A DNA stretch of 64,000 nt, taken from Antarcticibacterium flavum (GTDB lineage: Bacteria; Bacteroidota; Bacteroidia; Flavobacteriales; Flavobacteriaceae). Of this stretch, positions 36,566-51,270 are shown piece after piece. The notes beneath the pieces were generated by a model, which had not been told where the DNA came from, did not search any database, and saw nothing but the letters and a program-made list of their open reading frames with translations. The number at the start of each line of letters is the position of its first letter. Positions within the stretch are counted from its first letter, which is position 1. The stretch covers positions 1,612,001-1,676,000 of the forward strand of contig NZ_CP040812.1 of NCBI RefSeq assembly GCF_006159205.1. Reading direction: 5' to 3'. The position numbers were made by a program, and so were the translations under genes.

Positions 36566-38098
36566 ATGAACAAGAAAGTTGTATTTAAGACTTACTCACA
36601 GGACCAGTTAAGTCTTCTTCCGCCCAGCTATGATGATTTGGTTCCTAAGAATCATCCTGTCCGAATTGTAAATACGATTGTTGATCGCCTTGATATCTCC
36701 GCTTTAGAAAGGAGCTATAAAGGAGGTGGCACTTCCAGCTATCATCCCCGGATGTTATTAAAAGTGACCATTTATGCCTATTTGCGCAACATTTACTCCT
36801 CTCGTAAGATAGAGCAAGCCCTACAGGAGAACATACACTTTATGTGGCTTAGCGGGCAAAGCAAACCAGATCATAATACCATCAATGATTTTAGGGGAAA
36901 ACGCTTAAAAGGAACTTTTCAAAACATTTTTAATCAGGTTGTAATTTTATTGGCAGAACAAGGAGTGCTATCACTTAAAGAACTTTTTGTGGATGGCACC
37001 AAGATAGAAGCCAATGCTAACCGCTATACCTTTGTGTGGGGCAAGTCTAACAAGACCAGTAAAGAGCGAATCAAAAAACAACTTAAAGAACTATGGAAAT
37101 ATGTTGAGAGTGTCTATGACCAGGAGCAAATGTTGCCTAATGAACCTGATTTTGAAGCCATCGATCCTGAAAAAGTTGCTCAAACCATTGACACCATAAA
37201 CCAGGCCCTGAAGGACAAAGAGATTGACAAGAAGGTCAAACAAAAGCTCAATTATGCCAAAAAGAACTGGCCACAGAACCTACAAAAATATAATGAGCAG
37301 GAGAAGATCCTGGGAACAAGGAACAGCTACAGCAAAACAGATCCCGATGCCACCTTTATGCGGATGAAAGATGATTATATGCAAAATGGGCAATTAAAAC
37401 CCGGATATAACTTGCAGGCTTCAACCAATAATCAGTTTATCGTTAACTACTCCTTAGCACAAACTACAGCTGACACCACCACTTTAAAAGATCACCTGCA
37501 AAAACATATTGCCTCCTATGGAGAAGCTCCTCAAACTCTTACTGCCGACGCTGGTTACGGCAGTGAAGAAAATTATGTTGATCTAGAAGAGAAAGAAGTT
37601 ACTGCCTATGTGAAATACAACTACTTTCACAAAGAACAACGGGATAAAAAGCACAGAGAAAACCCTTTCCATCCCGATAACTTGTTTTACAACCAGGAAA
37701 CAGATACTTATTACTGTCCAATGGGGCAGGCGATGAATAAAATAGAAAGCTACGAAAGTGAAACTAAGAATGGTTTTAAACAAACGATCCACAAATACCA
37801 GGCTCAGAATTGCCTTGGCTGCCCGCTGCGAGGCAGCTGCCATAAAGCAAAAGGGAACAGGACCATCGAACGCAATCACAACCTAATTCGCCTAAAAGAA
37901 AAAGCAAGAGATTTGCTGCTAAGTGAAGAAGGAATAGCACATCGTAAGCGCCGGTGCTGGGATGTGGAAGCTGTCTTTGGAAATATCAAGCAGAACATGG
38001 GTTTCAAACGGTTTATGCTCCGGGGAATGGATAAAGCTACCACTGAGATAGGACTCATAGCAATGGCACACAACCTCAGGAAGTTCAGTGTAGCCTAA
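36566..38098 (+). CDS. IS1182-family DDE transposase
   Basis: 510-residue transposase that appears complete. The N-terminal domain (FKTYSQDQLSLLPPSYDDLVPKNHPVRIVNTIVD) and the DNA-binding SSYHPRMLLKVTIYAYLRNIYSSRKIEQ region are typical. The catalytic acids are in LFVDGTKIEANANRYTFVWGK (Asp143), LTADAGYGSEENY and WDVEAVFGNIKQNMGFKRF. A Cys cluster CLGCPLRGSCHKA lies in the insertion before the last acid. There is no frameshift or internal stop, so the element may be active. Confidence 0.93.
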   Translation: MNKKVVFKTYSQDQLSLLPPSYDDLVPKNHPVRIVNTIVDRLDISALERSYKGGGTSSYHPRMLLKVTIYAYLRNIYSSRKIEQALQENIHFMWLSGQSKPDHNTINDFRGKRLKGTFQNIFNQVVILLAEQGVLSLKELFVDGTKIEANANRYTFVWGKSNKTSKERIKKQLKELWKYVESVYDQEQMLPNEPDFEAIDPEKVAQTIDTINQALKDKEIDKKVKQKLNYAKKNWPQNLQKYNEQEKILGTRNSYSKTDPDATFMRMKDDYMQNGQLKPGYNLQASTNNQFIVNYSLAQTTADTTTLKDHLQKHIASYGEAPQTLTADAGYGSEENYVDLEEKEVTAYVKYNYFHKEQRDKKHRENPFHPDNLFYNQETDTYYCPMGQAMNKIESYESETKNGFKQTIHKYQAQNCLGCPLRGSCHKAKGNRTIERNHNLIRLKEKARDLLLSEEGIAHRKRRCWDVEAVFGNIKQNMGFKRFMLRGMDKATTEIGLIAMAHNLRKFSVA

Positions 38099-38179: not shown

Positions 38180-38216
38180 CCGCCTAAAAATTACTTTTTA
38201 GACGGCCTCTTTTTTT
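38180..38216 (+). terminator. Hairpin with T run in the right end of the IS element
   Basis: Stem CCGCCTAAAAA/TTTTTAGACGG (one mismatch) with a 4-nt loop, then CC and a T-rich tract overlapping the queE stop codon region. It acts as the + strand terminator for the transposase gene. Confidence 0.75.
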
Positions 38217-38847
38217 ATGGAATATTAAGATATTTATGGGTTTGCAAGGAAACCTTCCATTTTGGATTTTTCATGACATAATCTACGATCAAGGGGATCA
38301 TTTTTTCCCGCTTGCTCCATTCCGGCTGGAGATAGAGTATACAATCATTATTCACTTTTGCAGCCTGTTCCTCTGCAAATTTTAGATCGTGTGCATTAAA
38401 GACAATTACCTTAAGTTCATTGGCGACAGCATATATCTCCTCTGTAGGTAATTTTATCTTTTTAGGAGAAAGACATATCCAGTCCCAGTGGCCTGTTAGC
38501 TCATAAGCTCCTGAGGTCTCTATATGGATAGCACAGCCTTTTTCTTTAAGGCTCGAAGTAAGTGGCCCCATATCCCAGGTTAGAGGCTCCCCTCCAGTGA
38601 TCACAATAGTTTTGCTGTATTTAACTGCCTCTTCCACCATAGTATCTACAGCAGTGGGTGGATGAAGATCTGCATTCCAGCTTTCCTTAACATCACACCA
38701 GTGGCAGCCTACATCACAACCACCTATTCTTATAAAATAGGCGGCAGTTCCTTTATGATAACCTTCTCCCTGTATGGTATAGAAAGCCTCCATTAAAGGC
38801 AACATTTTTCCCTGGTCTACCAGCTCCTGTGTTTCTTCTTTTATCAT
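38215..38847 (-). CDS. queE: 7-carboxy-7-deazaguanine synthase
   Basis: Radical SAM enzyme of the queuosine/7-deazaguanine pathway, converting 6-carboxytetrahydropterin to 7-carboxy-7-deazaguanine. It has 210 aa. The glycine-rich start reads MEAFYTIQGEGYHKGTAAYF, and the cluster-binding motif GGCDVGCHWCD has the CxxxCxxC spacing. TGGEPL is the SAM-binding GGE motif. I use the ATG at 38847 (MIKEETQ): the upstream TTG at 38856 lies inside a TATCTTTG promoter box. The protein ends in the usual LQTHKYLNIP, so the flanking IS did not truncate it. Confidence 0.94.
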   Translation of the reverse strand: MIKEETQELVDQGKMLPLMEAFYTIQGEGYHKGTAAYFIRIGGCDVGCHWCDVKESWNADLHPPTAVDTMVEEAVKYSKTIVITGGEPLTWDMGPLTSSLKEKGCAIHIETSGAYELTGHWDWICLSPKKIKLPTEEIYAVANELKVIVFNAHDLKFAEEQAAKVNNDCILYLQPEWSKREKMIPLIVDYVMKNPKWKVSLQTHKYLNIP

Positions 38848-38853
38848 AGCGTG

Positions 38854-38861
38854 CAAAGATA
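38854..38861 (-). promoter_or_regulatory. Predicted queE promoter -7 box (TATCTTTG)
   Basis: A perfect TAnnTTTG match directly upstream of the chosen queE ATG; the spacing leaves at most a very short leader. Confidence 0.55.
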
Positions 38862-38914
38862 CGGATTCTCATCTTTTTAGACGCTTATAACAATGAAGAT
38901 TACAACCTCTGTAA

Positions 38915-40372
38915 TTATTTTATTATAAGGGCATTTTCAATTTCCAGCTCGTCCCTGGACAGGTCCAGAAGAAAGCCGTTGACCACCGCATATTCAATGC
39001 GCCCGTCTTTTTCAAGAAAAAAAGTTGACTCCAGGTCATTTCCCACTTTATAGCCGGGACTAACCATATGTATGGGATAGGGTGAGGATTTTTTATCACT
39101 GCCAAGGTCTTTGACAGGAATATAAGCATAGCCCTTTTTGAGCAATGCAGCATGGTCCAGCTCCTCCACCTGTTCAATTGTCAATTCCTGCGGATACACT
39201 TGCGGCATTTTTATCCCGTAACCTTCAGCATTGAATTCTTCATAGCCATAACTGGTTGAAAGGTCTCCCCGGTCTACTATATGACTTTTGTAATGAAAAC
39301 TGCGATTCTCCTCATCATCTACTTCCTGCCGGTTTATTCCTAAATCGAGAAGGTATTCATTGCCCAAAAGTTCATAGGTCACTTCAGTTATTTTAAGGTC
39401 AAAGAGCATCCTGTCATTTTCCGGAATTTCCTCATAAAGCGCGATATCATTTTCCAGGAAATCACCTTCAGCAATAGCAAAAAGTGCTGTGAGGATCATA
39501 CTGTAGTTCAATTTTCTAATCTCCTGTTTTTCAGGATCGTTTTGATAACCACCAGATTCTATAAGAATGGTGCTCGTGCCCCATTTCTGGATATTATCCC
39601 CAAACGCCCGGGGCTCGAAATCATCATTATATCGTCCTACCTGCCCGGGGATATACTCCTGCAGGTGCCTGTTCATTTCAACGATTAACTTAAGAGCATT
39701 TCCCCTTACCTCGTTAATGGACTTTTCGTAATTATATGCCGGCGCCAAAAATGAAACAGTTGCAGGGTTCCCGGTGCGGCTGGCATTGTAATATTTGCTT
39801 TGATCGTGGAGGTTAAAACCATAATCGGCGTCCAGGCTATCCCTAATTCTTTTAAGAGTTTGCCCCTCTGGCGACTGCAGCCTTAAAGCATCACGGTTCA
39901 CATCTATTCCCAACGCGTTGCGTCGTGTGAACTTCTCTGCCCCATCTGGATTCAGCATTGGCAGGAAATGGATGGTAAGCTCAGCAAACAGCTTTTCTTT
40001 TTCAGCTTTAAATTCATCGCTTTGCAAAAAATTGAAGATATCAAAAAGAGCCCGTGTTGCTGTAGATTCATCCCCATGCATCTGGGACCAGAGAAACACC
40101 TGCGTATCTCCCTTTCCTGCACTTAAAAGGTAAAGCTCCCTGCCCTCGATAGAAGTCCCCACCTGTTGCAGGTTGAAAAGTTCATTAGACCCCAATTCTT
40201 TAAGATGATTTTTTACCGCTGTATGTTTTATCCTTCGCTGGTCAAAATCATCCACTTTATATGTTGAATAGGAATCATAAAGGTCCTTATATAGTTGTGG
40301 AGTTTGTGCGAAGCCTGTGAGGCCGCATAGCACAAAAAGCAATGTGATCTTTATTGTATTCATATTTTTCAT
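38915..40372 (-). CDS. M14-family zinc carboxypeptidase (exported)
   Basis: 485 aa with a signal peptide (MKNMNTIKITLLFVLCGLTGFAQ). The zinc site is HGDE (His99, Glu102) and His189 in YGFNLHDQ; RNALGIDVNRD supplies the substrate-binding Arg/Asn, and LIESGGYQND contains the likely catalytic Glu. M14 peptidases remove C-terminal residues; some members cleave gamma-D-Glu-mDAP bonds of peptidoglycan stem peptides. Its ATG is one base after the amidase stop codon, so the two are cotranscribed. A peptidoglycan-peptide substrate is inferred from context only. Confidence 0.88.
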   Translation of the reverse strand: MKNMNTIKITLLFVLCGLTGFAQTPQLYKDLYDSYSTYKVDDFDQRRIKHTAVKNHLKELGSNELFNLQQVGTSIEGRELYLLSAGKGDTQVFLWSQMHGDESTATRALFDIFNFLQSDEFKAEKEKLFAELTIHFLPMLNPDGAEKFTRRNALGIDVNRDALRLQSPEGQTLKRIRDSLDADYGFNLHDQSKYYNASRTGNPATVSFLAPAYNYEKSINEVRGNALKLIVEMNRHLQEYIPGQVGRYNDDFEPRAFGDNIQKWGTSTILIESGGYQNDPEKQEIRKLNYSMILTALFAIAEGDFLENDIALYEEIPENDRMLFDLKITEVTYELLGNEYLLDLGINRQEVDDEENRSFHYKSHIVDRGDLSTSYGYEEFNAEGYGIKMPQVYPQELTIEQVEELDHAALLKKGYAYIPVKDLGSDKKSSPYPIHMVSPGYKVGNDLESTFFLEKDGRIEYAVVNGFLLDLSRDELEIENALIIK

Positions 40373-40373
40373 T

Positions 40374-41039
40374 TTAGTTTTTAACCGGCAGAGGTTTAAA
40401 ATTATACTTTGTAAATCCTTTCCTTAGATCATTCATAAATTCCTTCCCCGGGTCCACTTTGGTGGTGCGATAGGCTTCATTCTTTTCCAACCAGAGAGGA
40501 TGGCCTTCAAAGAGGGTATATTCATGATGTCCAATTACATAATCTATGGAATATTTTGTAGCCAGGTAACTTACCAAAAAAAGATTGGACATTAACTGGG
40601 CTTTGGTAAGAGGGGTGACCGGGGTCCCTCCTACATTTTCAATTCCTATTGCTGAATGGTTTAAGCCAATGACGTGCCTGGCCATCCAGATTTCCGGCAT
40701 TAACCTGTATATCCTGCCATCCCTGTCTACAAGGAAATGAGCTGAAACATTCAGGGCACCTGCCCCCTGTATATCACTTCTTGAGCCGGGCAATCTTACA
40801 GGATCAAAAGCGGCAAACGAAGCTTCAAGAGTGGGTATGGCTGTCCAGTGAACCACAATCATTTTAGGTTGTATCACCGGCTGTTCCTTCGCAATTCCAT
40901 AGCGGTCTTGCAGATACTCCAGGGTAAGTTCCTTTCGCTCTTCATCAAATTTAACAGGTCGATCAATAATATCACCTGCATGCCGGGAAGGGCTACAGGA
41001 AATAATAAGTAAAAGTAACGAAACTCGAAAATAGCGCAT
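40374..41039 (-). CDS. N-acetylmuramoyl-L-alanine amidase, lipoprotein
   Basis: 221-residue lipoprotein (lipobox LLIISC, Cys about residue 16) with an Ami_2/PGRP-type amidase domain. The first zinc His is in MIVVHWTAIPT, then SAHFLVDRDGRIYRLMPEIWMARHVIG, HSAIGIENVGG and VIGHHEYT. The family cleaves the bond between MurNAc and L-Ala, releasing stem peptides. Its start codon follows directly on the T run of the terminator-like hairpin after susD, so expression may depend on readthrough from the SusCD transcript. Confidence 0.9.
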   Translation of the reverse strand: MRYFRVSLLLLIISCSPSRHAGDIIDRPVKFDEERKELTLEYLQDRYGIAKEQPVIQPKMIVVHWTAIPTLEASFAAFDPVRLPGSRSDIQGAGALNVSAHFLVDRDGRIYRLMPEIWMARHVIGLNHSAIGIENVGGTPVTPLTKAQLMSNLFLVSYLATKYSIDYVIGHHEYTLFEGHPLWLEKNEAYRTTKVDPGKEFMNDLRKGFTKYNFKPLPVKN

Positions 41040-41074
41040 AAAAAAAATCTCCCGACAATATCGGGAGATTTTTT
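41040..41074 (-). terminator. Terminator/attenuator hairpin between susD and the amidase gene
   Basis: A 10-bp stem AATCTCCCGA/TCGGGAGATT with a 5-nt loop, followed on the minus strand by a run of T residues that ends at the amidase ATG. It lies 16 bp past the susD stop. Confidence 0.88.
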
Positions 41075-41089
41075 CAGGTTTAAAAGTCT

Positions 41090-42505
41090 TTATTCATCCC
41101 AAAAGATCCTGTCGAGCAAAGTAACATTTGGAACATTACTTCCATTCCTGCTCCTTTCAGAATCTGGATATGCCAGGCGTCGTATAAGCTGGCCATTGAG
41201 ATCTGGATTAAGATTTGCGGGTAATTCGAAACCTTCATACTGGTAATCGAATCTCCTGGCATCTACCCAGGCTTCAGGATGAAGGAACATTGCTTTCCAC
41301 TTTTCCTCAAAAATATCGTCCATTGTAAAAGCAGCTTCCCCCATACTTACTTCCGGGCTGTTTATGTAGGCTTGTATCTCTCCTTCCGGCACCCCCACTT
41401 TTCTCATATGAGCTTCAATCCCTTCCAGATATGCCTGGTAGGACCTGGATTTATCAATACTGAAAGCGGCTTCAGCCTCAATGAATTTTTGCTCAAAATA
41501 AGTAGCGATTAGAACCGGCCCCTCTCTTTCAGTATAGAACTGGTCTTCGATCAAGGTAGATCTCGCACCAGATTCTGGAGCATCGCCCCTCCCGGCACCA
41601 CTTTTTACCCCAATGTATTCGCCTTCGTCTGTAGCACCAATGATTAAGGGCATTCGTGGATCTTCAACTCCGTGGATCGTACCATCAAAGGCTGCAATGA
41701 AGTGTTCAGATATCCAGCCACCAAGAAATAAATTGGCGTTATTAATGGCTACAGTTGCCCAGGGATTATATGCCTGTTCAAAATACTCTACCTGTGCATC
41801 ATCTGCACTGCTTTCGAAACCTCCCTCCAAAGCTGCCAATACCGCAGCAGGATCATATGCTCCTGTACCACTTAAATGGTTTAAATACCTTGCACGCAGC
41901 ATATTTCCAAATTTCACCCACTTATCTGCATCCCCGGAATAGATAAAATCATCATTCCCCAGGGGCAAAGTGGTTTCCTGCGACATATTGGAAGTACCTT
42001 CGTTGAGCAGTGCCAAAACCCTGTCATAAAGCTGGGCATCATCATCGTAGGACGGGGTCAGGGTTGCAAAATCGAAGGATTCACTAAACGGCACATCCCC
42101 AAAGGCATCCACGGTCATAGCCAAATGAAGTCCAAGCAGGATTTGGCCCGCACCTTCATAATGGTTTGCACCGGTTTCCTGTGCTGCAGTGATCATATCA
42201 TTAAGATCTGTCATCACACTGTAAAGCGTAGCCCAGGTATTATCGAAACTTGTAGGTTCCATAGTATCTGCAGCTCCACCCGGGTTAGGCGATGCCAAAT
42301 ATTGCACATAATTTGAAGTAGTACTTCCCAGCCTGTAGACATTCTGGGCCGTTTCGTAAGTGGAATTTGTCATTAACCCCGCCAGAGGAGCCTCTGTGGG
42401 ATTATTCGGGTTCTCGTTAATATCAAGGTAGTCATCACAGGAGCCAAGCGTGGCCAGTGCACCCATTGCCAACGAATACGTAAATATTTTCTTTATAATC
42501 TTCAT
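41090..42505 (-). CDS. SusD/RagB-family outer membrane lipoprotein (SusD-like 2)
   Basis: 471-residue surface lipoprotein (lipobox LGSC, Cys about residue 23, followed by DDYLDINENPNNPTEAPLAGLMTNS). The sequence fits the second SusD-like family of nutrient-binding proteins, whose helical TPR-like fold caps a TonB-dependent channel. The C-terminal region includes EEKWKAMFLHPEAWVDARRFDYQYEGFELPANLNPDLNGQLIRRLAYPDSE-type sequence seen in that family. It follows susC by 11 bp. The substrate is not coded by any visible motif; neighbouring cell-wall peptidases suggest peptides. Confidence 0.92.
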   Translation of the reverse strand: MKIIKKIFTYSLAMGALATLGSCDDYLDINENPNNPTEAPLAGLMTNSTYETAQNVYRLGSTTSNYVQYLASPNPGGAADTMEPTSFDNTWATLYSVMTDLNDMITAAQETGANHYEGAGQILLGLHLAMTVDAFGDVPFSESFDFATLTPSYDDDAQLYDRVLALLNEGTSNMSQETTLPLGNDDFIYSGDADKWVKFGNMLRARYLNHLSGTGAYDPAAVLAALEGGFESSADDAQVEYFEQAYNPWATVAINNANLFLGGWISEHFIAAFDGTIHGVEDPRMPLIIGATDEGEYIGVKSGAGRGDAPESGARSTLIEDQFYTEREGPVLIATYFEQKFIEAEAAFSIDKSRSYQAYLEGIEAHMRKVGVPEGEIQAYINSPEVSMGEAAFTMDDIFEEKWKAMFLHPEAWVDARRFDYQYEGFELPANLNPDLNGQLIRRLAYPDSERSRNGSNVPNVTLLDRIFWDE

Positions 42506-42516
42506 AATAAACTTTT

Positions 42517-45500
42517 TTAGAAACCTAGGTTAAGTGTAAAAAACAAACTTTGAACTCCAGGGTAGCCAAGACCGGTAAATCCAACGGCATTACCACCCGC
42601 ACCGGCACTAAATGATTCCGGGTCAAACCCATCCCAGGGCGTATAAAGGATAATATTGTTTGCTGCTACAGCAATCCTGGCAGAATTAATGAAACCAAGT
42701 GAGCTTAGGATATTATCGTTAAAATTATACCCAAGGGTGATATTCCTTAATTTGACGAAAGAGGCATCCTGCACAAAGTTTTCACTCACAGTACGCTCTG
42801 TATTACGATAAAAACCGGCACCGTAGTCACGGCCATCTGGCCCCACACCCTGTCCCAGCCATACTTCCTGGGTATTGGGAGTACCATCTGCCAGCACCCC
42901 ATCAAAAACCCTGAATGAATTTCTTTCAAGGGTTCTTTCTGCTATACCAAATGCAGAGAAGAACATGTCATACTGGTTATACTGCTCTACCCCGGTCCTG
43001 AAATCTATAAGGAAAGACAGGTCCCAACCTTTATAGGTCAAGTTATTCCTTAAGCCCCCTATCCATTTGGGGGTCGCATTACCTAAAATAAGTAACTCCC
43101 CATTCCTTACCGGGAAACCATTTTCACCTATAACTATAGGAAGGTCCCTGTCGAGATGAGTGGTATTTTCATCTGCTCCAAACCTACGGTAACTACTACC
43201 ATAAATGTTGCCATAAGCCTCTCCTTCTGTTAAGATAGAAGATACAGTACTTCCAGCATACCCAAACTGGCTTCCCAGCGCAATTTGCTCTATTCCCTCC
43301 CTAATGGAGACAACTTCATTCCTGTTATAAGCTGCATTAAGGGCAATTTCCCATCTAAAATCTTCTGTTCTTATAGGGGTACCTCTAAGAATAAACTCAA
43401 CCCCGCGGTTTTCTATTTCCCCTGCATTTGTAATAAAAGTGGAGAAACCGGTGGTATTGGAAACCGGAACAGGAATAATTTGGTCCTTACTATTGGATTT
43501 ATACCAGGTAAAGTCCAATCCTAAACGGTTCTCAAAGAATCTAAGATCTGTTCCAAATTCTATCGCTGTTGTTCTTTCCGGCCGTAGATTAAGGTCTCCA
43601 TACTGGCTAAACCTTGTAAAACCTACCTGCCCGCCTAATGGATAAACATTAGGAGCCGTATAGGTTTGTCCTATTAAATAAGGATCTGTATCCTTACCAA
43701 CCTCAGCATAGGATGCTCTTAGTTTACCAAAGGTGAGAAAATCTGGACTATCCATAGCCTCTGTGAACACAAAACCAAGGTTTACAGATGGGTAAAAGAA
43801 GGAATTATTACCCACCGGCAAGGTAGAGGTCCAGTCATTTCTCGCTGTAATATTTAAGAACAGCATATTGTCATACTCAATACTTAAGTCCCCATACACA
43901 CCTACAAGTCTTTTCCGGCGCTTGTCCTGGGAATTTGAAAGCTGGTTTGTGTAACTAAGGTCATAAAAACGCGGAATTACGAATTCTGTTCCCGTAGCAT
44001 CAACTCTCTCCAGGTCCCTTTCAAAAACATCATTACCAACACGCAGTACGGTACTAAATTTTTCACTCCAGTCCCTGGAAAGGGTAACAAAGAAGTTGGA
44101 GTTAAGGTCCCGGCTGTTTATTCTTGTTTCAGTAATAAAACCCTGGGAGCTTAATGGTAATTCCCCTTCAATTCCCAGTGGACCGGGAGTAATTGAGGTA
44201 CGGGCATCGTGGAAATAATCTGTTCCAATAATGTAGTTTAAATTCATCCAGTCAAAGGGAGTGTATGTAAACCTGAAATTTCCGGTTATACGGTTCACCT
44301 CATCTTCAAACGTACTAAACCGGGCATCATATATTGGATTTGTATTGCCACCTCTTTGATTCATAGTTCCATCTTCGTTTATATAATCCCTTATGTCTTT
44401 ATTTGGCGTGTTATATACCAAACGTTCCATAAACCTGTCATGGGGCACCCTGTTACCACCAGAAACCACATAGGACATATTACCTGCAACCGAGAATTTC
44501 TCACTGAATTTCAGCTCTCCGTTTAACCTTGCGGTAGTCCTGCCCCAGGTACTGAAAGGAAGGATCCCTTCCTGGTCAAGATTACTTACAGAGGCATAGA
44601 AATTTGCATTTTCTGTCCCGCCGGAAATATTAAAAGAGTTATCATACTGCACCCCCGTATTCATTGCATCTCTCCAAATATCGTAGAATTGCGCATCTGG
44701 ATCAATTTGTCTAATTTCCTCCATTGAGGGCCCCCAATTTGGCCAAAAGGAATTAGGATCATAAACTCCGGCAAATCCCTGCCCATAGGTTTCCTGGAAT
44801 TTAGGGTATTGATTCACCTCTTCAAAACCTACGCTGCTGCTCACATTAATTCTCACATCCCCTGCCTTTCCTTTCTTGGTGGTGATAATAACCGCACCAT
44901 TTGCTGCCCTCACTCCATAAAGAGCTGTTGCCGCAGCACCTTTTAGAACGTTCATGGATTCTATGTCATTAGGGTTTATATCTGCAGCCCTGTTTGAAAG
45001 ACCACGTGGGGTTCCACCAGATTCTGTAGTGGAGTTATCAATTGGCACCCCATCTATAACAAATAATGGCTGGTTATCTGCATTTGGATCAAGTGAGTTC
45101 ACACCCCTTATAATGATTCGTGCACTTTGCCCCGGAGCTCCACCTGAATTGGTAATTTGCACCCCGGCAGCCTGTCCTTGAAGGGCACTTACAATATTAG
45201 GTTGCTTCGTTCTCGTAATTTCTTCTGAAGTAACTTCCTGCACGGCATATCCCAGCGCCCTGGTTTGTCTTTCAATACCAAAGGAGGTAACAACAACTTC
45301 ATCGAGCCCCTCCAGGTCTTCAGATAACTCTACATTGATAACCTGCTGGTTGCCTACAGCTACTTCTCTTGTCCCAAAACCAAGAGATGAAAACACCAGG
45401 GTTGCATTTGTAGGTACGGTAAGTGAATAATTACCGTCAAAATCTGTCGTGGTACCCACTGTAGTACCTTTCACAATAACATTGACCCCCGGAAGGACCA

Positions 45501-45609
45501 TGCCGTCTCTTGCACTTGTTACCTGTCCTGTTACCGTCCTCTCCTGGCCTACCATAGCAGATACCTGAAAAAGAGCAAGTAACACAAGAAATGTAATTTT
45601 GCTTTTCAT
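42517..45609 (-). CDS. SusC/RagA-family TonB-linked outer membrane protein
   Basis: 1030-residue TonB-dependent channel that imports what the SusD partner binds. In order: a signal peptide (MKSKITFLVLLALFQVSAMVGQ), a carboxypeptidase-like regulatory domain (TVTGQVTSARDGMVLPGVNVIVKGT), the plug domain with EVVVTSFGIERQTRALGYAVQEV, the conserved NVLKGAAATALYGVRAANGAVIITTKKG, and a large beta-barrel ending in QSLFFTLNLGF. The ATG at 45609 is chosen over an upstream codon that lies before the promoter. No extracytoplasmic sigma or anti-sigma gene is adjacent. Confidence 0.95.
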   Translation of the reverse strand: MKSKITFLVLLALFQVSAMVGQERTVTGQVTSARDGMVLPGVNVIVKGTTVGTTTDFDGNYSLTVPTNATLVFSSLGFGTREVAVGNQQVINVELSEDLEGLDEVVVTSFGIERQTRALGYAVQEVTSEEITRTKQPNIVSALQGQAAGVQITNSGGAPGQSARIIIRGVNSLDPNADNQPLFVIDGVPIDNSTTESGGTPRGLSNRAADINPNDIESMNVLKGAAATALYGVRAANGAVIITTKKGKAGDVRINVSSSVGFEEVNQYPKFQETYGQGFAGVYDPNSFWPNWGPSMEEIRQIDPDAQFYDIWRDAMNTGVQYDNSFNISGGTENANFYASVSNLDQEGILPFSTWGRTTARLNGELKFSEKFSVAGNMSYVVSGGNRVPHDRFMERLVYNTPNKDIRDYINEDGTMNQRGGNTNPIYDARFSTFEDEVNRITGNFRFTYTPFDWMNLNYIIGTDYFHDARTSITPGPLGIEGELPLSSQGFITETRINSRDLNSNFFVTLSRDWSEKFSTVLRVGNDVFERDLERVDATGTEFVIPRFYDLSYTNQLSNSQDKRRKRLVGVYGDLSIEYDNMLFLNITARNDWTSTLPVGNNSFFYPSVNLGFVFTEAMDSPDFLTFGKLRASYAEVGKDTDPYLIGQTYTAPNVYPLGGQVGFTRFSQYGDLNLRPERTTAIEFGTDLRFFENRLGLDFTWYKSNSKDQIIPVPVSNTTGFSTFITNAGEIENRGVEFILRGTPIRTEDFRWEIALNAAYNRNEVVSIREGIEQIALGSQFGYAGSTVSSILTEGEAYGNIYGSSYRRFGADENTTHLDRDLPIVIGENGFPVRNGELLILGNATPKWIGGLRNNLTYKGWDLSFLIDFRTGVEQYNQYDMFFSAFGIAERTLERNSFRVFDGVLADGTPNTQEVWLGQGVGPDGRDYGAGFYRNTERTVSENFVQDASFVKLRNITLGYNFNDNILSSLGFINSARIAVAANNIILYTPWDGFDPESFSAGAGGNAVGFTGLGYPGVQSLFFTLNLGF

Positions 45610-45641
45610 TGGTTTGTTTGTTAAAAAATTAGGATTAGAAA

Positions 45642-45671
45642 CTAATATACCATAATTGTTCAAAACACAAA
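45642..45671 (-). promoter_or_regulatory. Predicted susCD promoter (TTTG-N18-TATATTAG)
   Basis: A -33 TTTG at 45671-45668 and a one-mismatch -7 box TATATTAG at 45649-45642 are separated by 18 bp. The box lies 32 bp upstream of the susC ATG. Confidence 0.55.
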
Positions 45672-45800
45672 GCAAAAAAAACCGATAAACTGCACCTGCC
45701 TGTTAAAAAATTTCACTTTTGGCCAAGCAGAGGAAATATTTATTAAGCACTGAAAATAACCAGATTAGCGGGTGTTTAAACCGAAACACAACCTACATCC

Positions 45801-46971
45801 TTATACTTTCTTCAAAAAATTTGTCTTGGGATTGGATTGAGAAAAATCCTTAATTAATTGATAGGTTTGAGGAATGGATTTCTCCAGTCGCTCAAGGGTT
45901 TCCTGAGGGATATTGTCACGGCTGAAGGGCACAACCTTCACGTATTCCTGTATCTCCCCTGCCTGTCTTCCATATTTATAATCATAGGGAAATCTGCCAT
46001 TCTCATCTACTTTCACACGGGGATTCCCGGAATTGGGAACACTTATATAGAACTCACTGTTCGCAATATTGCCTGCAGGATTAAAAAGTGCTTTTTGCTG
46101 TAAATATTCATACAGCTCCTCTGCAACATTCACAGCCGGATCTACAATTGCCACATCTTCCACCATATGATCCCTGTAGATATATTGTCCTTCCTTTTGA
46201 TAATTATACAATTCCTCCAGGATATCCCGGATTTGAAGGGTTAGATAGGTTAATTCTAAGGATGGTATTCTCATATCCTTTTGACTGGATGGTCCCTACG
46301 GTAGCCATTACCCCCACGCTTGCATCCTCTTCCAGTTCCATGCGTGATAATGTTCCTCTTGCTCCTGCATCAATAACCCCTATAATTTTTAACTCTATCC
46401 CCGTTTTAAGGAAAAACTCCTGCACAAGCTCACTACCATAGGCAGTAGCTGTATTACACGCAATAACTATGGATTTTACAGGAAGCTTGTCCTTTTGAAC
46501 GATACTGTCTTTACCATCCCGGTAGTATTTATTGGAAACCAGGAATTGCACATCCTTTATAATATGTTCTACAAGTAAATCGGTTTTCTCCTCGCTGGAA
46601 TAATTACCGTAAGGCATATTGGCCTGGTCTGCCAGGTAGATAAACTCCTCTTCCAGGAAATCGGCCTTACCATCGCTTTGCTTTTCTCGTGTTTGATTAT
46701 TATGAGCATCAAAATTCACAAGGGCATCCAGCACAGTTAAACCTCCTGTTCCCGAGTCAAACACCCCAATTGGCAGGGTGGGGTCCATGGCAGGGTACTC
46801 TTCAAAATTCACATAATAAAAGGACTCCCGGTCTTCGAGAATACTTGAAATAATTGGCCTTTCTTCCTCTGTATTCACCCGGGGATCCACCATTTCCTTC
46901 TGGTTGTTTTTACAGGCAATGCTCAGACTAAGTATTAGGATCGAAGGGAGATAAAGACGAAAGAAATGCAT
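45801..46971 (-). pseudogene. Broken exported glutamate/aspartate racemase-like lipoprotein
   Basis: Two overlapping frames encode the two ends of one protein. The N-terminal frame (46971 to 46204) starts MHFFRLYLPSILILSLSIACKN with a lipobox (SIAC) and has the racemase motifs IGVFDSGTGGLTVLDAL and the first catalytic Cys in SIVIACNTATAYGSELV. It stops soon after MATVGTIQSKGYENTI. The C-terminal frame (46274 to 45801) picks up at YLTLQIRDILEELYNY and continues to NSEFYISVPNSGNP and the end. The segment that should carry the second catalytic Cys (GCTHYP) is missing, so this looks like an internal deletion plus frameshift, and the product should be inactive. Confidence 0.78.
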
Positions 46972-47261
46972 ATAATGGAATTTTAAATTAAAAACAGAAG
47001 AATGGTGAACGTATACCCACAGACTTAAAATCCATAGCCCAAAAAAAACTTCCACTTACTGGAAAAGGTCCCGAAAAAAAACCAACAAACTTAAATGTAC
47101 TCCAAAAAGTTAGAAACACCAAGTACCTGGAAGAGGTCAAATCCTGTTAACCTGTGAAGGAGTAAAATCTATAAATCGAAATAAACCTAAGTTTGACTTT
47201 TCATATTATCTAAAAAAACTAAATTTAAGCCACTAATTGATTATCGCCTTAAACTGTCTAA

Positions 47262-48590
47262 ATGGTCTCCAAATTTCGAATATCACGGCACACTATTTTT
47301 CTCTTTTTCTTCCTCTCATTTTTATTCCTTTTGTTCTCGTCCTGTTCTTCAACTAAAATAATTGACAGGACGTTTAAGAAATCGCCTTCCTTTGAGCAGG
47401 GTTTTGCAGGTCTGGCAGTTTATGATCTTACAGCAGGAAAAATGATCTATGAACATAATGCCTCAAAATATTTCACCCCGGCTTCCAACATAAAACTCTT
47501 TAGCTTATATACAGGCTTAAAGATACTGGGAGACTCTGTTCCTGCTTTGAAATATGAAGTAAGGGGCGACTCTGTTATTTTCAAAGGAACAGGGGATCCT
47601 TCTTTCCTAAATCCTGACTTGCAGGAATCGAAGATTGCAGAGTTTTTAAGGAATCGCAGTGAAACACTTTATTATTTTCCTCCTTCTTTTACTGAAAAAT
47701 ATTTTGGGCCGGGATGGTCCTGGGACGACTATAATTCTTATTACAGCGTAGAAAGATCTTCTTTTCCCGTCTACGGAAATAGGATATCTGTAGAATTTCC
47801 TGCCGGTGCTAAAGTGCCGAGGGTAAGCCCGGGCATTTTTAAAGATTCCATTGGGCCTGTTACTACTTCAGAAAATTTTAGAGGTGTGCGAAGAGAGATG
47901 CTTTCCAATAAATTTAGTTTTGATCAAAATACCTCCCAACGTTCACAGCCCCAACAGGTTCCTGTGAAATACTCTCCCGAATTACTGGTAAATATATTAC
48001 GAGACACGCTGCAAAAAGAGGTCGTCCTCCTGCAGGACCCTAAATCCCAGTTCAGAAATCCCAAAACCCTTTACAGTTTACCGGTGGATAGTATTTATAG
48101 ACGTATGATGGAGGTGAGCGATAATTTCATTGCTGAGCAAATTCTGCTTTTGGCGGCAGGTAAGATTGCCGACACACTAAAAACAGAGATTGCAATAGCA
48201 CACATGCTGGAAAATCATTTACAGGACCTCCCCGACGAGCCGCAGTGGGTAGATGGCTCGGGTTTATCAAGGTATAACCTTGTAACACCTCGTACCATGG
48301 TGGCCCTGTTGAGAAAGATCAAGGCTGAAGCTCCGGTAGAAAGACTTTTCGGTTTAATGGCTACCGGAGGAGTATCGGGCACCCTTAAAAACAATTATGC
48401 AGCCGCCACCCCATATATTTTTGCAAAGACCGGCACTTTAAGGAACAACCATAGCCTTAGCGGATTCTTACGCGCAAAATCGGGGAAAATCCTTGCTTTC
48501 AGTTTTATGAACAGCAATTATGTGGTGCCTACTTCAGAATTAAAGGAAAACATGGAGGTGATCCTGAAGCAGTTATATGAAAGGAATTAA
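47262..48590 (+). CDS. PBP4/DacB-type D-Ala-D-Ala carboxypeptidase (S13), lipoprotein
   Basis: 442-residue exported serine peptidase that trims D-Ala or opens crosslinks in peptidoglycan. A long hydrophobic N-terminus ends in a lipobox (FSSC, Cys28). The penicillin-binding motifs are SNIK (75-78), SDN (286-288) and KTG (389-391), and VDGSGLSRYNLVTPR is characteristic of family S13. The family is normally periplasmic; lipid anchoring would place it on a membrane. It faces the SusCD/amidase genes across a 290-bp gap that contains no other gene. Confidence 0.92.
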   Translation: MVSKFRISRHTIFLFFFLSFLFLLFSSCSSTKIIDRTFKKSPSFEQGFAGLAVYDLTAGKMIYEHNASKYFTPASNIKLFSLYTGLKILGDSVPALKYEVRGDSVIFKGTGDPSFLNPDLQESKIAEFLRNRSETLYYFPPSFTEKYFGPGWSWDDYNSYYSVERSSFPVYGNRISVEFPAGAKVPRVSPGIFKDSIGPVTTSENFRGVRREMLSNKFSFDQNTSQRSQPQQVPVKYSPELLVNILRDTLQKEVVLLQDPKSQFRNPKTLYSLPVDSIYRRMMEVSDNFIAEQILLLAAGKIADTLKTEIAIAHMLENHLQDLPDEPQWVDGSGLSRYNLVTPRTMVALLRKIKAEAPVERLFGLMATGGVSGTLKNNYAAATPYIFAKTGTLRNNHSLSGFLRAKSGKILAFSFMNSNYVVPTSELKENMEVILKQLYERN

Positions 48591-48665
48591 GCAGCAATAA
48601 AAGTTAATAAAATTGGCTAATTCTTTTAAATTAGCACAAAATGGCTTCAGCGTAATACAGAATCA

Positions 48666-49721
48666 ATGGAGAGAAGAAACTTTTTAAGAAATCTTGGAAC
48701 AGGAGGACTCGCTGTTTCCCTTTCAGCTTTTACACTTCCGCAGGAAACATTCCTCACCTCATCAATAAATAAACCCGATCTCCCCCGGCGACTTAAAGAA
48801 GGTGATACTATAGGAATAGTAAGCCCTTCCAGTGCAATTTTTGAAACTGAACCTTATGAGATCGCGGTGGAGACCTTTGAGGCAATGGGCTTACGGGTGA
48901 AACTTGGACAATTTGTAAATAATCGATATGGGCATCTTGCGGGAACCGATGAGGAAAGGGCTGCAGAGCTTACTGAGATGTTTGGGGACCCTCAAATTGA
49001 CGCTATCATCGCCCTTAGAGGTGGCTCTGGAGCAGCAAGGATCCTTGAGAAACTTGATTACGAACTCATTGCTAAAAACCCCAAGATTTTTATAGGGTAT
49101 AGTGATATCACTGCCCTTCACCTGGCAATATATGCAAAGACAGGACTGGTTACCTTTCACGCACCTCTTGCTGTATCTACCTGGAATGACTTTAGCTATT
49201 CAAACTTTAGAAAAGTGCTTTTCGAGGCGGAAACGGTTACCTATAAAAATCCTGCTGAGAAAGGAAAGAACCTTGTGGTTACAAAAAACAGGATAAGAAC
49301 TATACAGCCGGGTAAGGCAAAGGGAGAATTGCTTGGCGGCAACCTCTCTGTTCTCACCGGTATAATGGGTTCGCCTTATTTTCCTAACAACTGGGACAAT
49401 AAGATCCTTTACCTCGAAGATGTGGGGGAACAGATCTATGCTGTGGACAGGATGATGTCCCAGTTGCAATTGGGTGGAGTACTTGACAAAATATCAGGAT
49501 TTGTATTTGGAAAATGCACAGATTGTAAGCCAGGAAGCGGCTATGGTTCCCTCACGATGGAAGAAGTTATAGACCATTATATAAAACCATTAAATATTCC
49601 CGCATATACAGGCGCTATGATTGGACATATTGATGATAATTCAACAATTCCCAACGGGCTTGGTGCCGAGATTGATGCAAGTGAAGGAACTATAAGATTG
49701 TTACAGCCGGCGGTAATTTAA
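48666..49721 (+). CDS. LD-carboxypeptidase (peptidase S66), with export signal
   Basis: 351 aa of the LdcA/MccF family, serine peptidases that cut the L,D bond before the terminal D-Ala of tetrapeptides in muropeptide recycling. The N-terminus MERRNFLRNLGTGGLAVSLSAFTLPQ resembles a twin-arginine signal. Catalytic-region motifs are GIVSPSSAIFETEPYE, DAIIALRGGSGAARILE with the nucleophile Ser in the GGSG loop, FIGYSDITALHLA, LLGGNLSVLTGIMGSPYFP and YTGAMIGHIDDN. Many S66 enzymes are cytoplasmic, so an exported form fits extracytoplasmic muropeptide breakdown. It lies 75 bp after the S13 gene. Confidence 0.9.
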   Translation: MERRNFLRNLGTGGLAVSLSAFTLPQETFLTSSINKPDLPRRLKEGDTIGIVSPSSAIFETEPYEIAVETFEAMGLRVKLGQFVNNRYGHLAGTDEERAAELTEMFGDPQIDAIIALRGGSGAARILEKLDYELIAKNPKIFIGYSDITALHLAIYAKTGLVTFHAPLAVSTWNDFSYSNFRKVLFEAETVTYKNPAEKGKNLVVTKNRIRTIQPGKAKGELLGGNLSVLTGIMGSPYFPNNWDNKILYLEDVGEQIYAVDRMMSQLQLGGVLDKISGFVFGKCTDCKPGSGYGSLTMEEVIDHYIKPLNIPAYTGAMIGHIDDNSTIPNGLGAEIDASEGTIRLLQPAVI

Positions 49722-49749
49722 AAGGGGTTATTAAATAAAATCATATAAT

Positions 49750-51270
49750 ATGGAAAACAGGGAGGAATTTATACAACATATTCAACAGGGTTATTCTTCC
49801 AAAGGAGACCATATCTTTATGGGAGCGGCGATGCTCGATGGACAACCGGTTGCAGAAGCCCGTGTAAAGATCCCGCTACGCACCCTTAACCGGCACGGTT
49901 TAATAGCCGGGGCAACAGGAACCGGAAAAACAAAAACCCTGCAAATACTTGCTGAAAATCTTTCAGATAAAGGGATCCCCTGCCTTTTAATGGATATTAA
50001 AGGTGATTTAAGCGGAATAGCCAAAGCTGCTGAAGATAATGAAAAATTAAGGAGCAGGCACAGGTTAATCGATTTCGAATTCACTCCCCAGCGCTCTCCT
50101 GTTGAGATCCTGAGCCTTTCAGATCAACCCGGGGTAAAGCTGAAAGCAACAGTAAGCGAGTTTGGACCCGTACTCTTAAGCCGTATCCTGAATCTTACCG
50201 ATACCCAAACCGGTATTTTGGGCATAATCTTTCAATATTGTGACAATAACCACCTACCACTTCTGGACCTGAAGGACCTTAAAAAGATCCTGCAGTATGC
50301 CACAGATGAAGGTAAAGAAGAATTTGAAAAAGACTACGGGAGAATTTCCAAAGCTTCTACGGGAGCCATCCTTAGAAATATTGTTTCCCTGGAACAACAG
50401 GGCGGGGACCGCCTGTTCGGTGAACCTTCTTTTGAAGTCCACGATCTTATAAGGAAAACCCCAGAGGGGAAAGGTTACATCAACATCCTAAGACTGGATG
50501 ACATACAGGATAAACCAAAGCTCTTTTCCACGTTTATGATAAGCCTGCTTGCAGAAGTATATTCTGAATTCCCTGAAAAAGGGGATGCTGAAAACCCGGA
50601 ACTAATTCTATTTATAGATGAAGCGCATCTCATATTCAAAGAAGCATCTGGCGCGTTGATGGATCAACTGGAAAGCATCATAAAACTTATAAGGTCCAAG
50701 GGGATAGGGATCTATTTCGTAACTCAAAACCCTACAGATGTACCTGCAGAGATCCTAAGCCAGCTGGGACTTAAGATCCAGCACTCCCTGCGCGCTTTTA
50801 CTGCAAAAGACAGGAAAGCCATAAAATTAACAGCAGAAAATTATCCTCTTTCTAAATATTACGATACCAAAGAAGTCCTTACGGCGTTAGGAATAGGGGA
50901 AGCATTGATCTCTGCTCTTGACGATAAAGGCAGGCCCACCCCGCTCGCTGCAACAATGCTGCGGGCACCAATGAGCAGAATGGATATACTTACAGAACAG
51001 GAATTAAGGGAGATCACCGGCTCCTCCACCCTGGCCAGAAAGTACAGCGGTGACATAGACAGGGAAAGCGCATATGAACTTCTAAACGCAAAGATATCAA
51101 AGGCAGAAAAGGAAGAAGCTCGCACTAAAGCAAAGAAGGAAAGAGAAACTATTTCCCGCACAACAACCCGAAAAAGAGGATCGCAAAGGCAAAACCCCGT
51201 TATCAAAGTCCTCACCAGTGCAACATTTATTAGAGGGGTGATGAGCATTTTAAATAAAAGTTTTAAATAA
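49750..51270 (+). CDS. HerA-like ATPase (DUF853 family)
   Basis: 506-residue P-loop ATPase of the HerA/FtsK superfamily. Walker A GATGTGKTKT is near residues 55-64, Walker B LILFIDEAHLIF near 288-299, and an arginine-containing KSIGIY-like sensor region with TQNP follows. The C-terminal 70 residues are Lys/Arg/Glu-rich and probably helical. DUF853 members are conserved and widespread, and their cellular role is not settled; DNA translocation is inferred by homology. It starts 28 bp after the S66 gene and is 9 bp from the next lipoprotein gene, so it probably belongs to one transcript. Confidence 0.9.
   Translation: MENREEFIQHIQQGYSSKGDHIFMGAAMLDGQPVAEARVKIPLRTLNRHGLIAGATGTGKTKTLQILAENLSDKGIPCLLMDIKGDLSGIAKAAEDNEKLRSRHRLIDFEFTPQRSPVEILSLSDQPGVKLKATVSEFGPVLLSRILNLTDTQTGILGIIFQYCDNNHLPLLDLKDLKKILQYATDEGKEEFEKDYGRISKASTGAILRNIVSLEQQGGDRLFGEPSFEVHDLIRKTPEGKGYINILRLDDIQDKPKLFSTFMISLLAEVYSEFPEKGDAENPELILFIDEAHLIFKEASGALMDQLESIIKLIRSKGIGIYFVTQNPTDVPAEILSQLGLKIQHSLRAFTAKDRKAIKLTAENYPLSKYYDTKEVLTALGIGEALISALDDKGRPTPLAATMLRAPMSRMDILTEQELREITGSSTLARKYSGDIDRESAYELLNAKISKAEKEEARTKAKKERETISRTTTRKRGSQRQNPVIKVLTSATFIRGVMSILNKSFK

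What the first reader, a model, noticed from the sequence alone, without database searches (positions are those of the whole stretch)
38915..49721. Candidate peptidoglycan-peptide utilisation locus built around a SusCD pair
Within 11 kb lie a lipoprotein MurNAc-L-Ala amidase, an M14 carboxypeptidase coupled to it, SusC/SusD, an exported glutamate-racemase-like lipoprotein (now broken), an S13 DD-peptidase lipoprotein and an S66 LD-carboxypeptidase with an export signal. Each acts on a different bond or residue of muropeptides, and most are predicted to be outside the cytoplasm. SusCD systems are usually glycan or protein loci; one dedicated to cell-wall stem peptides, perhaps for scavenging other bacteria, would be unusual.
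Basis: inference. Interest (0 to 1): 0.7.

Follow-up and report, generated by a model that had tools for sequence, protein, structure and literature searches.

The report
Probable SusCD locus for peptidoglycan peptides
A Bacteroidota genome carries an outer-membrane nutrient importer whose close relatives sit beside enzymes that take apart the peptide part of bacterial cell walls, so it probably feeds on cell-wall peptides rather than sugars; no experiment has shown this yet.

Summary
The genes are real. A broken racemase, SusC, SusD, Amidase_2 and M14 lie on the minus strand; S13-S66 diverge from them. S13 and S66 belong to a conserved backbone: all 13 same-genus loci read have them, only 4 have SusCD. 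The racemase lipoprotein is a pseudogene. The core is SusC-SusD-Ami-M14.

Comparison supports the central idea. The window's SusD lies in a 29-row clade (SH-aLRT 100); 29 of 29 rows have S13, S66, amidase, M14 or dipeptide epimerase within 9 kb, 17 of them S13 alone. Of 39 control PF12771 loci 1 does, in this same slot. Some relatives carry fuller sets: Fulvivirga has SusC-SusD-S66-amidase-M14-DgcN-like-epimerase.

Best reading: TonB-driven uptake and periplasmic trimming of peptidoglycan stem peptides or muropeptides. The substrate is inferred, never measured. Against it: S9 peptidases beside many relatives, and a generic M14 fold. My literature searches showed no such SusCD locus. New variant of a known kind.

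The parts
42517..45609 (-). SusC/RagA TonB-dependent outer-membrane barrel (1030 aa from the ATG at 45609; ORF listed to 45675)
   Evidence: TIGR04056 695 bits, Plug, TonB_dep_Rec, CarbopepD_reg_2
41090..42505 (-). SusD-like_2 lipoprotein (PF12771), lid of the importer; 11 nt from SusC
   Evidence: 190 bits to PF12771; member of a 29-row SusD clade, 29 of 29 rows with a stem-peptide enzyme nearby
40374..41039 (-). Amidase_2 lipoprotein (AmpD/T7-lysozyme-like N-acetylmuramoyl-L-alanine amidase); 50 nt after SusD
   Evidence: 70.5 bits to PF01510; PDB matches to amidases and T7 lysozyme; motifs complete
38915..40372 (-). M14 metallopeptidase with N-terminal signal peptide and a C-terminal beta-rich region; starts 1 nt after the amidase ORF ends
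46204..46971 (-). N-terminal piece of an exported glutamate-racemase-like lipoprotein (ORF listed to 47055), upstream of SusC; pseudogene
   Evidence: TIGR00067 69 bits, below its cut-off of 147; lacks the second Cys segment of its relatives
45801..46274 (-). C-terminal piece of the same broken racemase, in another frame
   Evidence: aligns with the C-terminal part of six intact 511-515 aa relatives
47262..48590 (+). S13 (PBP4-type) DD-carboxypeptidase lipoprotein; divergent neighbour, chromosomal backbone gene of the genus
   Evidence: 156 bits to PF02113; present beside S66 in 13 of 13 genus loci read, 9 of them without SusCD
48666..49721 (+). S66 LD-carboxypeptidase with Tat-like signal; backbone gene
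   Evidence: PF02016/PF17676; 14 of 16 genus genomes
38215..38856 (-). QueE, backbone gene that marks the other edge of the variable slot
   Evidence: QueE next to S13 in the 8 empty-slot genus loci

Best explanation
The locus is an outer-membrane import system for peptidoglycan-derived peptides (free stem peptides or muropeptides), assembled in a variable chromosomal slot beside housekeeping S13/S66 genes. Steps: (1) SusD captures and SusC imports the fragment with TonB energy [inferred from family]. (2) In the periplasm the lipoprotein amidase cuts MurNAc-L-Ala where sugar is still attached; S13 and Tat-type S66 trim D-Ala; M14 cuts a further stem-peptide bond [families shown, bonds inferred; M14 bond unknown]. 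(3) The resulting L-Ala-D-Glu-type dipeptide enters the cytoplasm, perhaps by the SSF symporter encoded elsewhere in this genome next to an L-Ala-D/L-Glu-type epimerase and an NlpC/P60 peptidase, and is epimerised for use [gene cluster shown, flux inferred]. The racemase lipoprotein upstream of SusC may once have belonged [inference] but is dead.
For: SusD clade of 29 rows, 29 with S13/S66/Ami/M14/epimerase within 9 kb, versus 1 of 39 control PF12771 loci. With a wider reference set, 31 of 31 (the 29 plus Fulvivirga and Gelidibacter) versus 0 of 38 once that slot-mate is left out (Fisher p ~1e-20, inflated by kinship). The theme recurs in different gene orders. In the clade: Salegentibacter/Christiangramia/Gramella S66-S13|SusC-SusD-(Ami)-M14; Cesiribacter with S13, NlpC/P60, Amidase_2 and epimerase; Pareuzebyella/Euzebyella/Flagellimonas epimerase-PLP|SusD-SusC. 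Outside the 29 rows: Fulvivirga SusC-SusD-lp-S66-Ami-M14-DgcN-like-epimerase; Gelidibacter epimerase-PLP-SusC-SusD-S13|M14-Ami. Two genomes of another class (f24) have SusC-SusD-NlpC/P60-Bla2-Ami-S13, but they were found through the amidase and so are no independent test. M14-Ami adjacency 20 of 20. Amidase presence tracks the epimerase: 19 of 20 amidase genomes versus 17 of 100 others (epimerase at 46% identity or more). The window genome has its own cluster GHL10-SSF-epimerase-NlpC/P60-Amidase_2-ROK-NagB, whose epimerase and NlpC/P60 are nearest in PDB to 3iji and 3pvq.
Against: No substrate data. S13/S66 here are backbone. 17 of the 29 clade rows (Algoriphagus and kin) are linked only through S13, and 14 of those 17 also have an S9 peptidase. 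More distant SusDs (41-53%) mostly lack the core enzymes (4 of 51) while 15 of 51 have S9, so the wider family may take ordinary peptides. The amidase is seen beside SusD in only 3 of 20 family genomes and 5 of 20 in the phylum sample (two listings partly cut). The M14 model matches carboxypeptidases of the A/B/M/T type, with no wall-specific one recognised among the rows shown. The epimerase scores below the curated NCBIfam cut-offs.
Confidence: 0.6

Rival explanations
1. A general oligopeptide SusCD (RagAB/BT2263-2264-like) with peptidases; the cell-wall enzymes are neighbours because this SusCD lineage settles in chromosomal slots next to housekeeping wall genes.
For: S13/S66 are backbone genes in this genus; 17 of 29 clade rows have only S13, 14 of them with S9, and S9 is beside 15 of 51 more distant SusDs; M14 fold is a generic carboxypeptidase; a profile of 12 SusDs (5 in the clade, 7 outside) matches BT_2263, sixth among 27 solved SusD-type sequences, a peptide-linked pair (passage in PMC11817032).
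Against: Amidase, epimerase, NlpC/P60 and S66 are not general peptidases and recur with this SusCD in different orders and slots, in 0 of 38 control loci; the Fulvivirga run contains little else.
Confidence: 0.25
2. A salvage system for the cell's own shed wall fragments (recycling across the outer membrane), not a foraging locus.
For: The enzymes are also recycling enzymes; the genome has a recycling-type cluster elsewhere.
Against: Patchy distribution: SusCD in 4 of 13 genus loci read and amidase in 2 of 16 genus genomes, unlike a housekeeping function.
Confidence: 0.1
3. SusCD is an unrelated nutrient importer that happens to sit in an insertion hot spot.
For: Slot is empty in 8 of 13 genus loci read and holds type A or type B SusCD in others; a transposase lies within 1 kb of M14, between DUF2911 and QueE.
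Against: 29 of 29 clade rows in several slots and orders against 1 of 39 controls.
Confidence: 0.05

Closest known systems
Polysaccharide utilisation loci (SusCD PULs) of Bacteroidota
   Same: SusC/SusD pair with substrate-processing enzymes in one gene run
   Different: No glycoside-acting family among the ten proteins scanned at 38215-51270; the enzymes belong to stem-peptide families
RagAB and BT2263-2264 peptide SusCD pairs
   Same: SusCD with peptide-type cargo; a profile of the SusD relatives matches BT_2263
   Different: Neighbours here are wall-peptide enzymes; RagAB takes up peptides (passages, PMC11817032)
Tannerella forsythia peptidoglycan scavenging (AmpG, MurT-MurK-MurQ)
   Same: A Bacteroidota member living on external wall fragments (PMC7670621, passages)
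   Different: Described for MurNAc-containing fragments through an inner-membrane permease; the passages I saw named no SusCD importer
Muropeptide dipeptide catabolism by NlpC/P60 + L-Ala-D/L-Glu epimerase (BT_1314/BT_1313-type, names recalled)
   Same: Same enzyme types, in this genome's second cluster and, in Cesiribacter, beside SusCD
   Different: Known to me (recalled) as recycling enzymes without an outer-membrane importer
DgcN-DgcA D-glutamate pathway of marine bacteria
   Same: A DgcN-like DUF1611 protein plus an enolase-family epimerase end the Fulvivirga run; pathway mentioned in passages of PMC12363236
   Different: No DgcN match in the window genome; Fulvivirga proteins score below the curated cut-offs

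Membership tests
SusC/RagA-SusD/RagB outer-membrane importer | SusC/RagA subfamily TonB-dependent barrel | tested here: met
   TIGR04056 694.7 bits over cut-off 368; TIGR04057 60.6 over 46.2
SusC/RagA-SusD/RagB outer-membrane importer | Adjacent SusD-family lipoprotein | tested here: met
   PF12771 190 bits; lipobox-like Cys23; 11 nt from SusC
Polysaccharide utilisation locus | Degradative CAZymes beside susCD | tested here: not met
   No glycoside-acting family among the ten proteins scanned at 38215-51270
Peptidoglycan stem-peptide utilisation locus (proposed) | Enzymes of stem-peptide families beside SusCD in relatives more often than in control SusCD loci | tested here: met
   29 of 29 clade rows versus 1 of 39 controls; 17 of the 29 by S13 alone
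Peptidoglycan stem-peptide utilisation locus (proposed) | Importer binds or transports stem peptides or muropeptides | not testable with these tools
   needs binding or uptake assays
N-acetylmuramoyl-L-alanine amidase (Amidase_2/AmpD-like) | Amidase_2 domain with complete catalytic residues | tested here: met
   PF01510 70.5 bits over 26; H64, E134, H171/172, K194-x-D196 (residue roles recalled)
Wall-specific M14 peptidase (MpaA-like) | Closer to gamma-D-Glu-DAP M14 peptidases than to other carboxypeptidases | tested here: inconclusive
   model pLDDT 76.9 matches carboxypeptidases A/B/M/T/U; no wall-specific M14 recognised in the rows shown
Glutamate racemase | Two catalytic cysteines | tested here: not met
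   window copy has ACNTATA but lacks the GCTHYP segment; six intact relatives have both
L-Ala-D/L-Glu epimerase (window genome, L218:9152-10189) | Enolase-superfamily dipeptide epimerase | tested here: inconclusive
   MR_MLE domains; best PDB match 3iji, third 1jpd L-Ala-D/L-Glu epimerase; homologues score below NCBIfam equivalog cut-offs

The most novel reading that the evidence does not exclude
A phylum-wide class of modular SusCD loci is dedicated to peptidoglycan stem peptides: one SusD clade (type A), and perhaps a second (type B), have been combined again and again with amidase, LD/DD-carboxypeptidase, M14, NlpC/P60, amidohydrolase, DgcN-like and dipeptide-epimerase genes, and a parallel set of SusCD loci carries exported glutamate racemases. 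Together they would form an outer-membrane route by which Bacteroidota harvest D-amino-acid-rich wall peptides.
Probability: 0.45. Interest if true: 0.75.

Novelty: new variant of a known kind. Interest (0 to 1): 0.6.

Why it matters
Peptidoglycan is a D-amino-acid-rich part of dissolved organic matter (general knowledge; D-amino acids as a component of deep-sea organic matter also in the abstract start of PMC12363236). How Bacteroidota bring its peptide half across the outer membrane was not described in the listings and passages my searches returned. If right, the SusD clade gives a marker for wall-peptide foraging in genomes and metagenomes, a new cargo class for SusCD importers, and named, cultured genera (Christiangramia, Salegentibacter, Algoriphagus, Fulvivirga) in which to test it.

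Tried and rejected
Rejected: S13 and S66 as locus-specific genes (backbone in 13 of 13 genus loci read). Rejected: a working exported racemase here. Rejected: a classical PUL (no CAZyme among ten proteins). Tried without decision: M14 bond specificity by fold (no wall-specific M14 recognised among the rows shown, which excludes nothing). DgcN in the window genome: 0 matches. Type B SusD (the alternative pair in the same slot): 9 of 24 loci with core enzymes; three of the nine (L030, L099, L102) have S13 and S66 from the backbone, of which L030 also has Ami and M14, and L282 was found through the amidase; so type B is only a weak case. The window's genus was not named by any tool.

Literature: searches (SusD, peptidoglycan, muropeptide, Bacteroidetes; 3 papers; dipeptide epimerase, SusD; 0; 536 papers, 15 listed; 177, 25 listed; SusCD, peptidoglycan; 26, 25 listed; 2; 2407, 10 listed; 1247, 25 listed; 0), 77 (0). 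No listed title, and no passage that I saw (PMC10811738, PMC11658791, PMC10877868, PMC12363236, PMC11817032, PMC7670621, PMC11382707; passages only), describes a SusCD locus for wall peptides. Long lists were seen only in part, and subscription papers are not in the library.

Control limits: the 39 control SusD loci were hand-picked, roughly every fourth row of the about 150 best rows that one search listed (more matches exist unlisted); all come from the window's own family, whereas the clade spans two classes. Clade rows are related, so p-values overstate the evidence. Neighbour calls rest on simple ORF calling and blastp to reference proteins (bits >= 120 and identity >= 30%; bits >= 100). 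Rows dropped: L184 (no usable SusD ORF); identical SusDs (L082/L142, L084/L151 and L043/L168 are the same loci) and L223 (same locus as L030) before the tree; one search leaves L223 out of the controls. The tree is a quick one and its program warned of long branches, mostly controls. The listing of L039 and L040 was partly cut. In one search I translated the racemase piece off frame; its line there is ignored.

Full report
What is there. On the minus strand, in order of transcription: a broken glutamate-racemase-like lipoprotein, SusC, SusD (PF12771), an Amidase_2 lipoprotein and an M14 metallopeptidase, with gaps of 11, 50 and 1 nt from SusC on; then QueE. Divergently on the plus strand: S13, S66, HerA. 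Active-site motifs of the four hydrolases are complete by inspection.

Which genes form a unit. In 13 same-genus loci read (window, L097-L107, L049; 13 of 16 genus genomes) QueE lies on one side and S13-S66 with HerA beyond on the other; DUF2911, AsnB and GyrB follow QueE where the locus reaches that far, except that AsnB was not called in L049. The space between QueE and S13 is empty in 8, holds SusCD of the window's type in 2 (window; G120 with M14 and no amidase), a different SusCD (type B, 34-35% SusC and 27-28% SusD identity) in 2, and amidase + a split M14 + a second S13 without SusCD in 1. S13 and S66 are therefore housekeeping neighbours and SusCD-Ami-M14 is the variable part. The amidase occurs in 2 of 16 genus genomes and 20 of 120 family genomes, and M14 is directly beside it in 20 of 20. 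Elsewhere the pair is looser: M14 is beside the amidase in 3 of 16 further loci, all three of the window's own family.

The racemase. Six intact relatives of 511-515 aa carry a lipoprotein-like start and both cysteine motifs. The window copy lacks about 110 residues with the second motif and changes frame: a pseudogene. In 4 of the 6 intact loci (L092-L095) a different SusCD pair is nearby. M14-type genes are near in L091, L092, L093 and L095; an amidohydrolase next to the racemase was scanned and found in L091 and L092 (its NCBIfam match PRK09061, which I recall as D-glutamate deacylase); L091 also has a glutamate-symporter-like gene. L096 has no SusCD but a penicillin-amidase and two beta-lactamase-family genes. 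The family is widespread: 4213 proteins at E <= 1e-40 among the 8000 candidates scored.

Relatives of the importer. A SusD alignment found 508 relatives, of which the best 80 were kept as named loci. A tree of 129 SusDs places the window in a clade of 29 rows (SH-aLRT 100). All 29 have at least one of S13, S66, amidase, M14 or epimerase within 9 kb: 6 in the window's slot (M14 in 6 of 6, amidase in 4 of 6, S13/S66 as backbone), 1 Cesiribacter, 5 with epimerase and PLP enzyme, 17 with S13 alone. Label changes on the tree are 7 against a shuffled mean of 33. In 39 control PF12771 loci of the family, 1 is positive, and it is the same chromosomal slot in G031 holding a type B SusCD. With a wider reference set the controls without that locus are 0 of 38 and the SusD loci outside the clade (41-53% identity) are 4 of 51.

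Different arrangements, same theme. In the clade: Salegentibacter, Christiangramia and Gramella, S66-S13 | SusC-SusD-(Ami)-M14-QueE; Cesiribacter, S13, NlpC/P60, SusC-SusD, beta-lactamase2-type protein, Amidase_2, two amidohydrolases, epimerase; Pareuzebyella, Euzebyella and Flagellimonas, epimerase and a BioF-like PLP enzyme; Algoriphagus, Cyclobacterium, Aquiflexum and Arenibacter, SusC-SusD with S13, 14 of 17 also with an S9 peptidase. Just outside the clade: Fulvivirga imtechensis, SusC-SusD-lipoprotein-S66-Ami-(beta-lactamase2+M14 fusion)-DgcN-like-epimerase on one strand; further out, Gelidibacter, epimerase-PLP-SusC-SusD-S13 with M14-Ami opposite. Two genomes of another class (f24: G488, G452) have SusC-SusD (57-58% SusD identity)-NlpC/P60-Bla2-Ami with S13; G564 has the same set with a type B SusD. 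These three were found through the amidase search, so they show that the set exists but are no independent test. In the slot beside the epimerase, SusD of 61-64% (L082-L084) or 32-35% identity (L086, L087) occurs, again different SusCDs in one place.

Link to D-Glu metabolism. SusD relatives at E <= 1e-60 occur in 11 of 199 family genomes; an epimerase lies within about 6 kb in 8 of the 11 (some of these genomes are also among the named loci above). Amidase genomes nearly all have an epimerase of at least 46% identity: 19 of 20, against 17 of 100 other genomes (counted by hand for handles G000-G119; G106 is not shown and was counted as lacking it; weaker epimerase matches at 29-37% were not counted; Fisher). 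The window genome has its epimerase 650 kb away, in a cluster with GHL10, SSF symporter, NlpC/P60, a second Amidase_2, ROK kinase, a NagB+PIG-L gene (and an unscanned look-alike) and GH3-beta-lactamase. Nearest solved structures are 3iji (labelled muconate cycloisomerase; third is L-Ala-D/L-Glu epimerase 1jpd) for the epimerase and 3pvq for the NlpC/P60. Their identification with Bacteroides BT_1313/BT_1314 is recalled.

Verdict. Ordinary-peptide uptake remains the main rival, because more than half of the clade is tied in by S13 alone, often with S9, and because M14 is generic. I rate it a new variant of SusCD utilisation locus, moderately to highly interesting, unproven in substrate.

Noticed in passing
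window 36566-38098 (+): DDE transposase (DDE_Tnp_1_6, DUF772) inserted between DUF2911 and QueE, which are direct neighbours in the other 12 genus loci read.
   Followed up: partly
L091-L096 (intact relatives of the window's racemase): An exported glutamate-racemase-like lipoprotein family of about 510 aa with both Cys motifs, in 4 of 6 loci near another SusCD pair and in 4 of 6 near an M14-type gene: possibly a second kind of D-Glu utilisation locus.
   Followed up: partly
L218 (G000:C1:2296001-2316000): Compact peptidoglycan-recycling-like cluster in the window's genome: GHL10, SSF symporter, epimerase, NlpC/P60, Amidase_2, ROK, NagB+PIG-L, GH3-beta-lactamase.
   Followed up: partly
L082-L084, L086-L088, L043: A BioF/Kbl-like PLP enzyme beside the dipeptide epimerase in these loci (not in L089, L141 or L165); its role with wall peptides is unexplained.
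   Followed up: no
L030, L099, L102, L282: A second SusCD clade (type B) uses the same chromosomal slot as the window's SusCD in related genomes and accompanies NlpC/P60, amidase and S13 in G564.
   Followed up: partly
L165:13836-16502: Fusion of a beta-lactamase2-type domain with an M14 peptidase (888 aa) in Fulvivirga.
   Followed up: no
L033:8041-9372: A beta-lactamase-family (PF00144) protein near the M14-amidase pair in a genome without SusCD there; ORFs with a similar start stand near the pair in several other loci but were not scanned.
   Followed up: no
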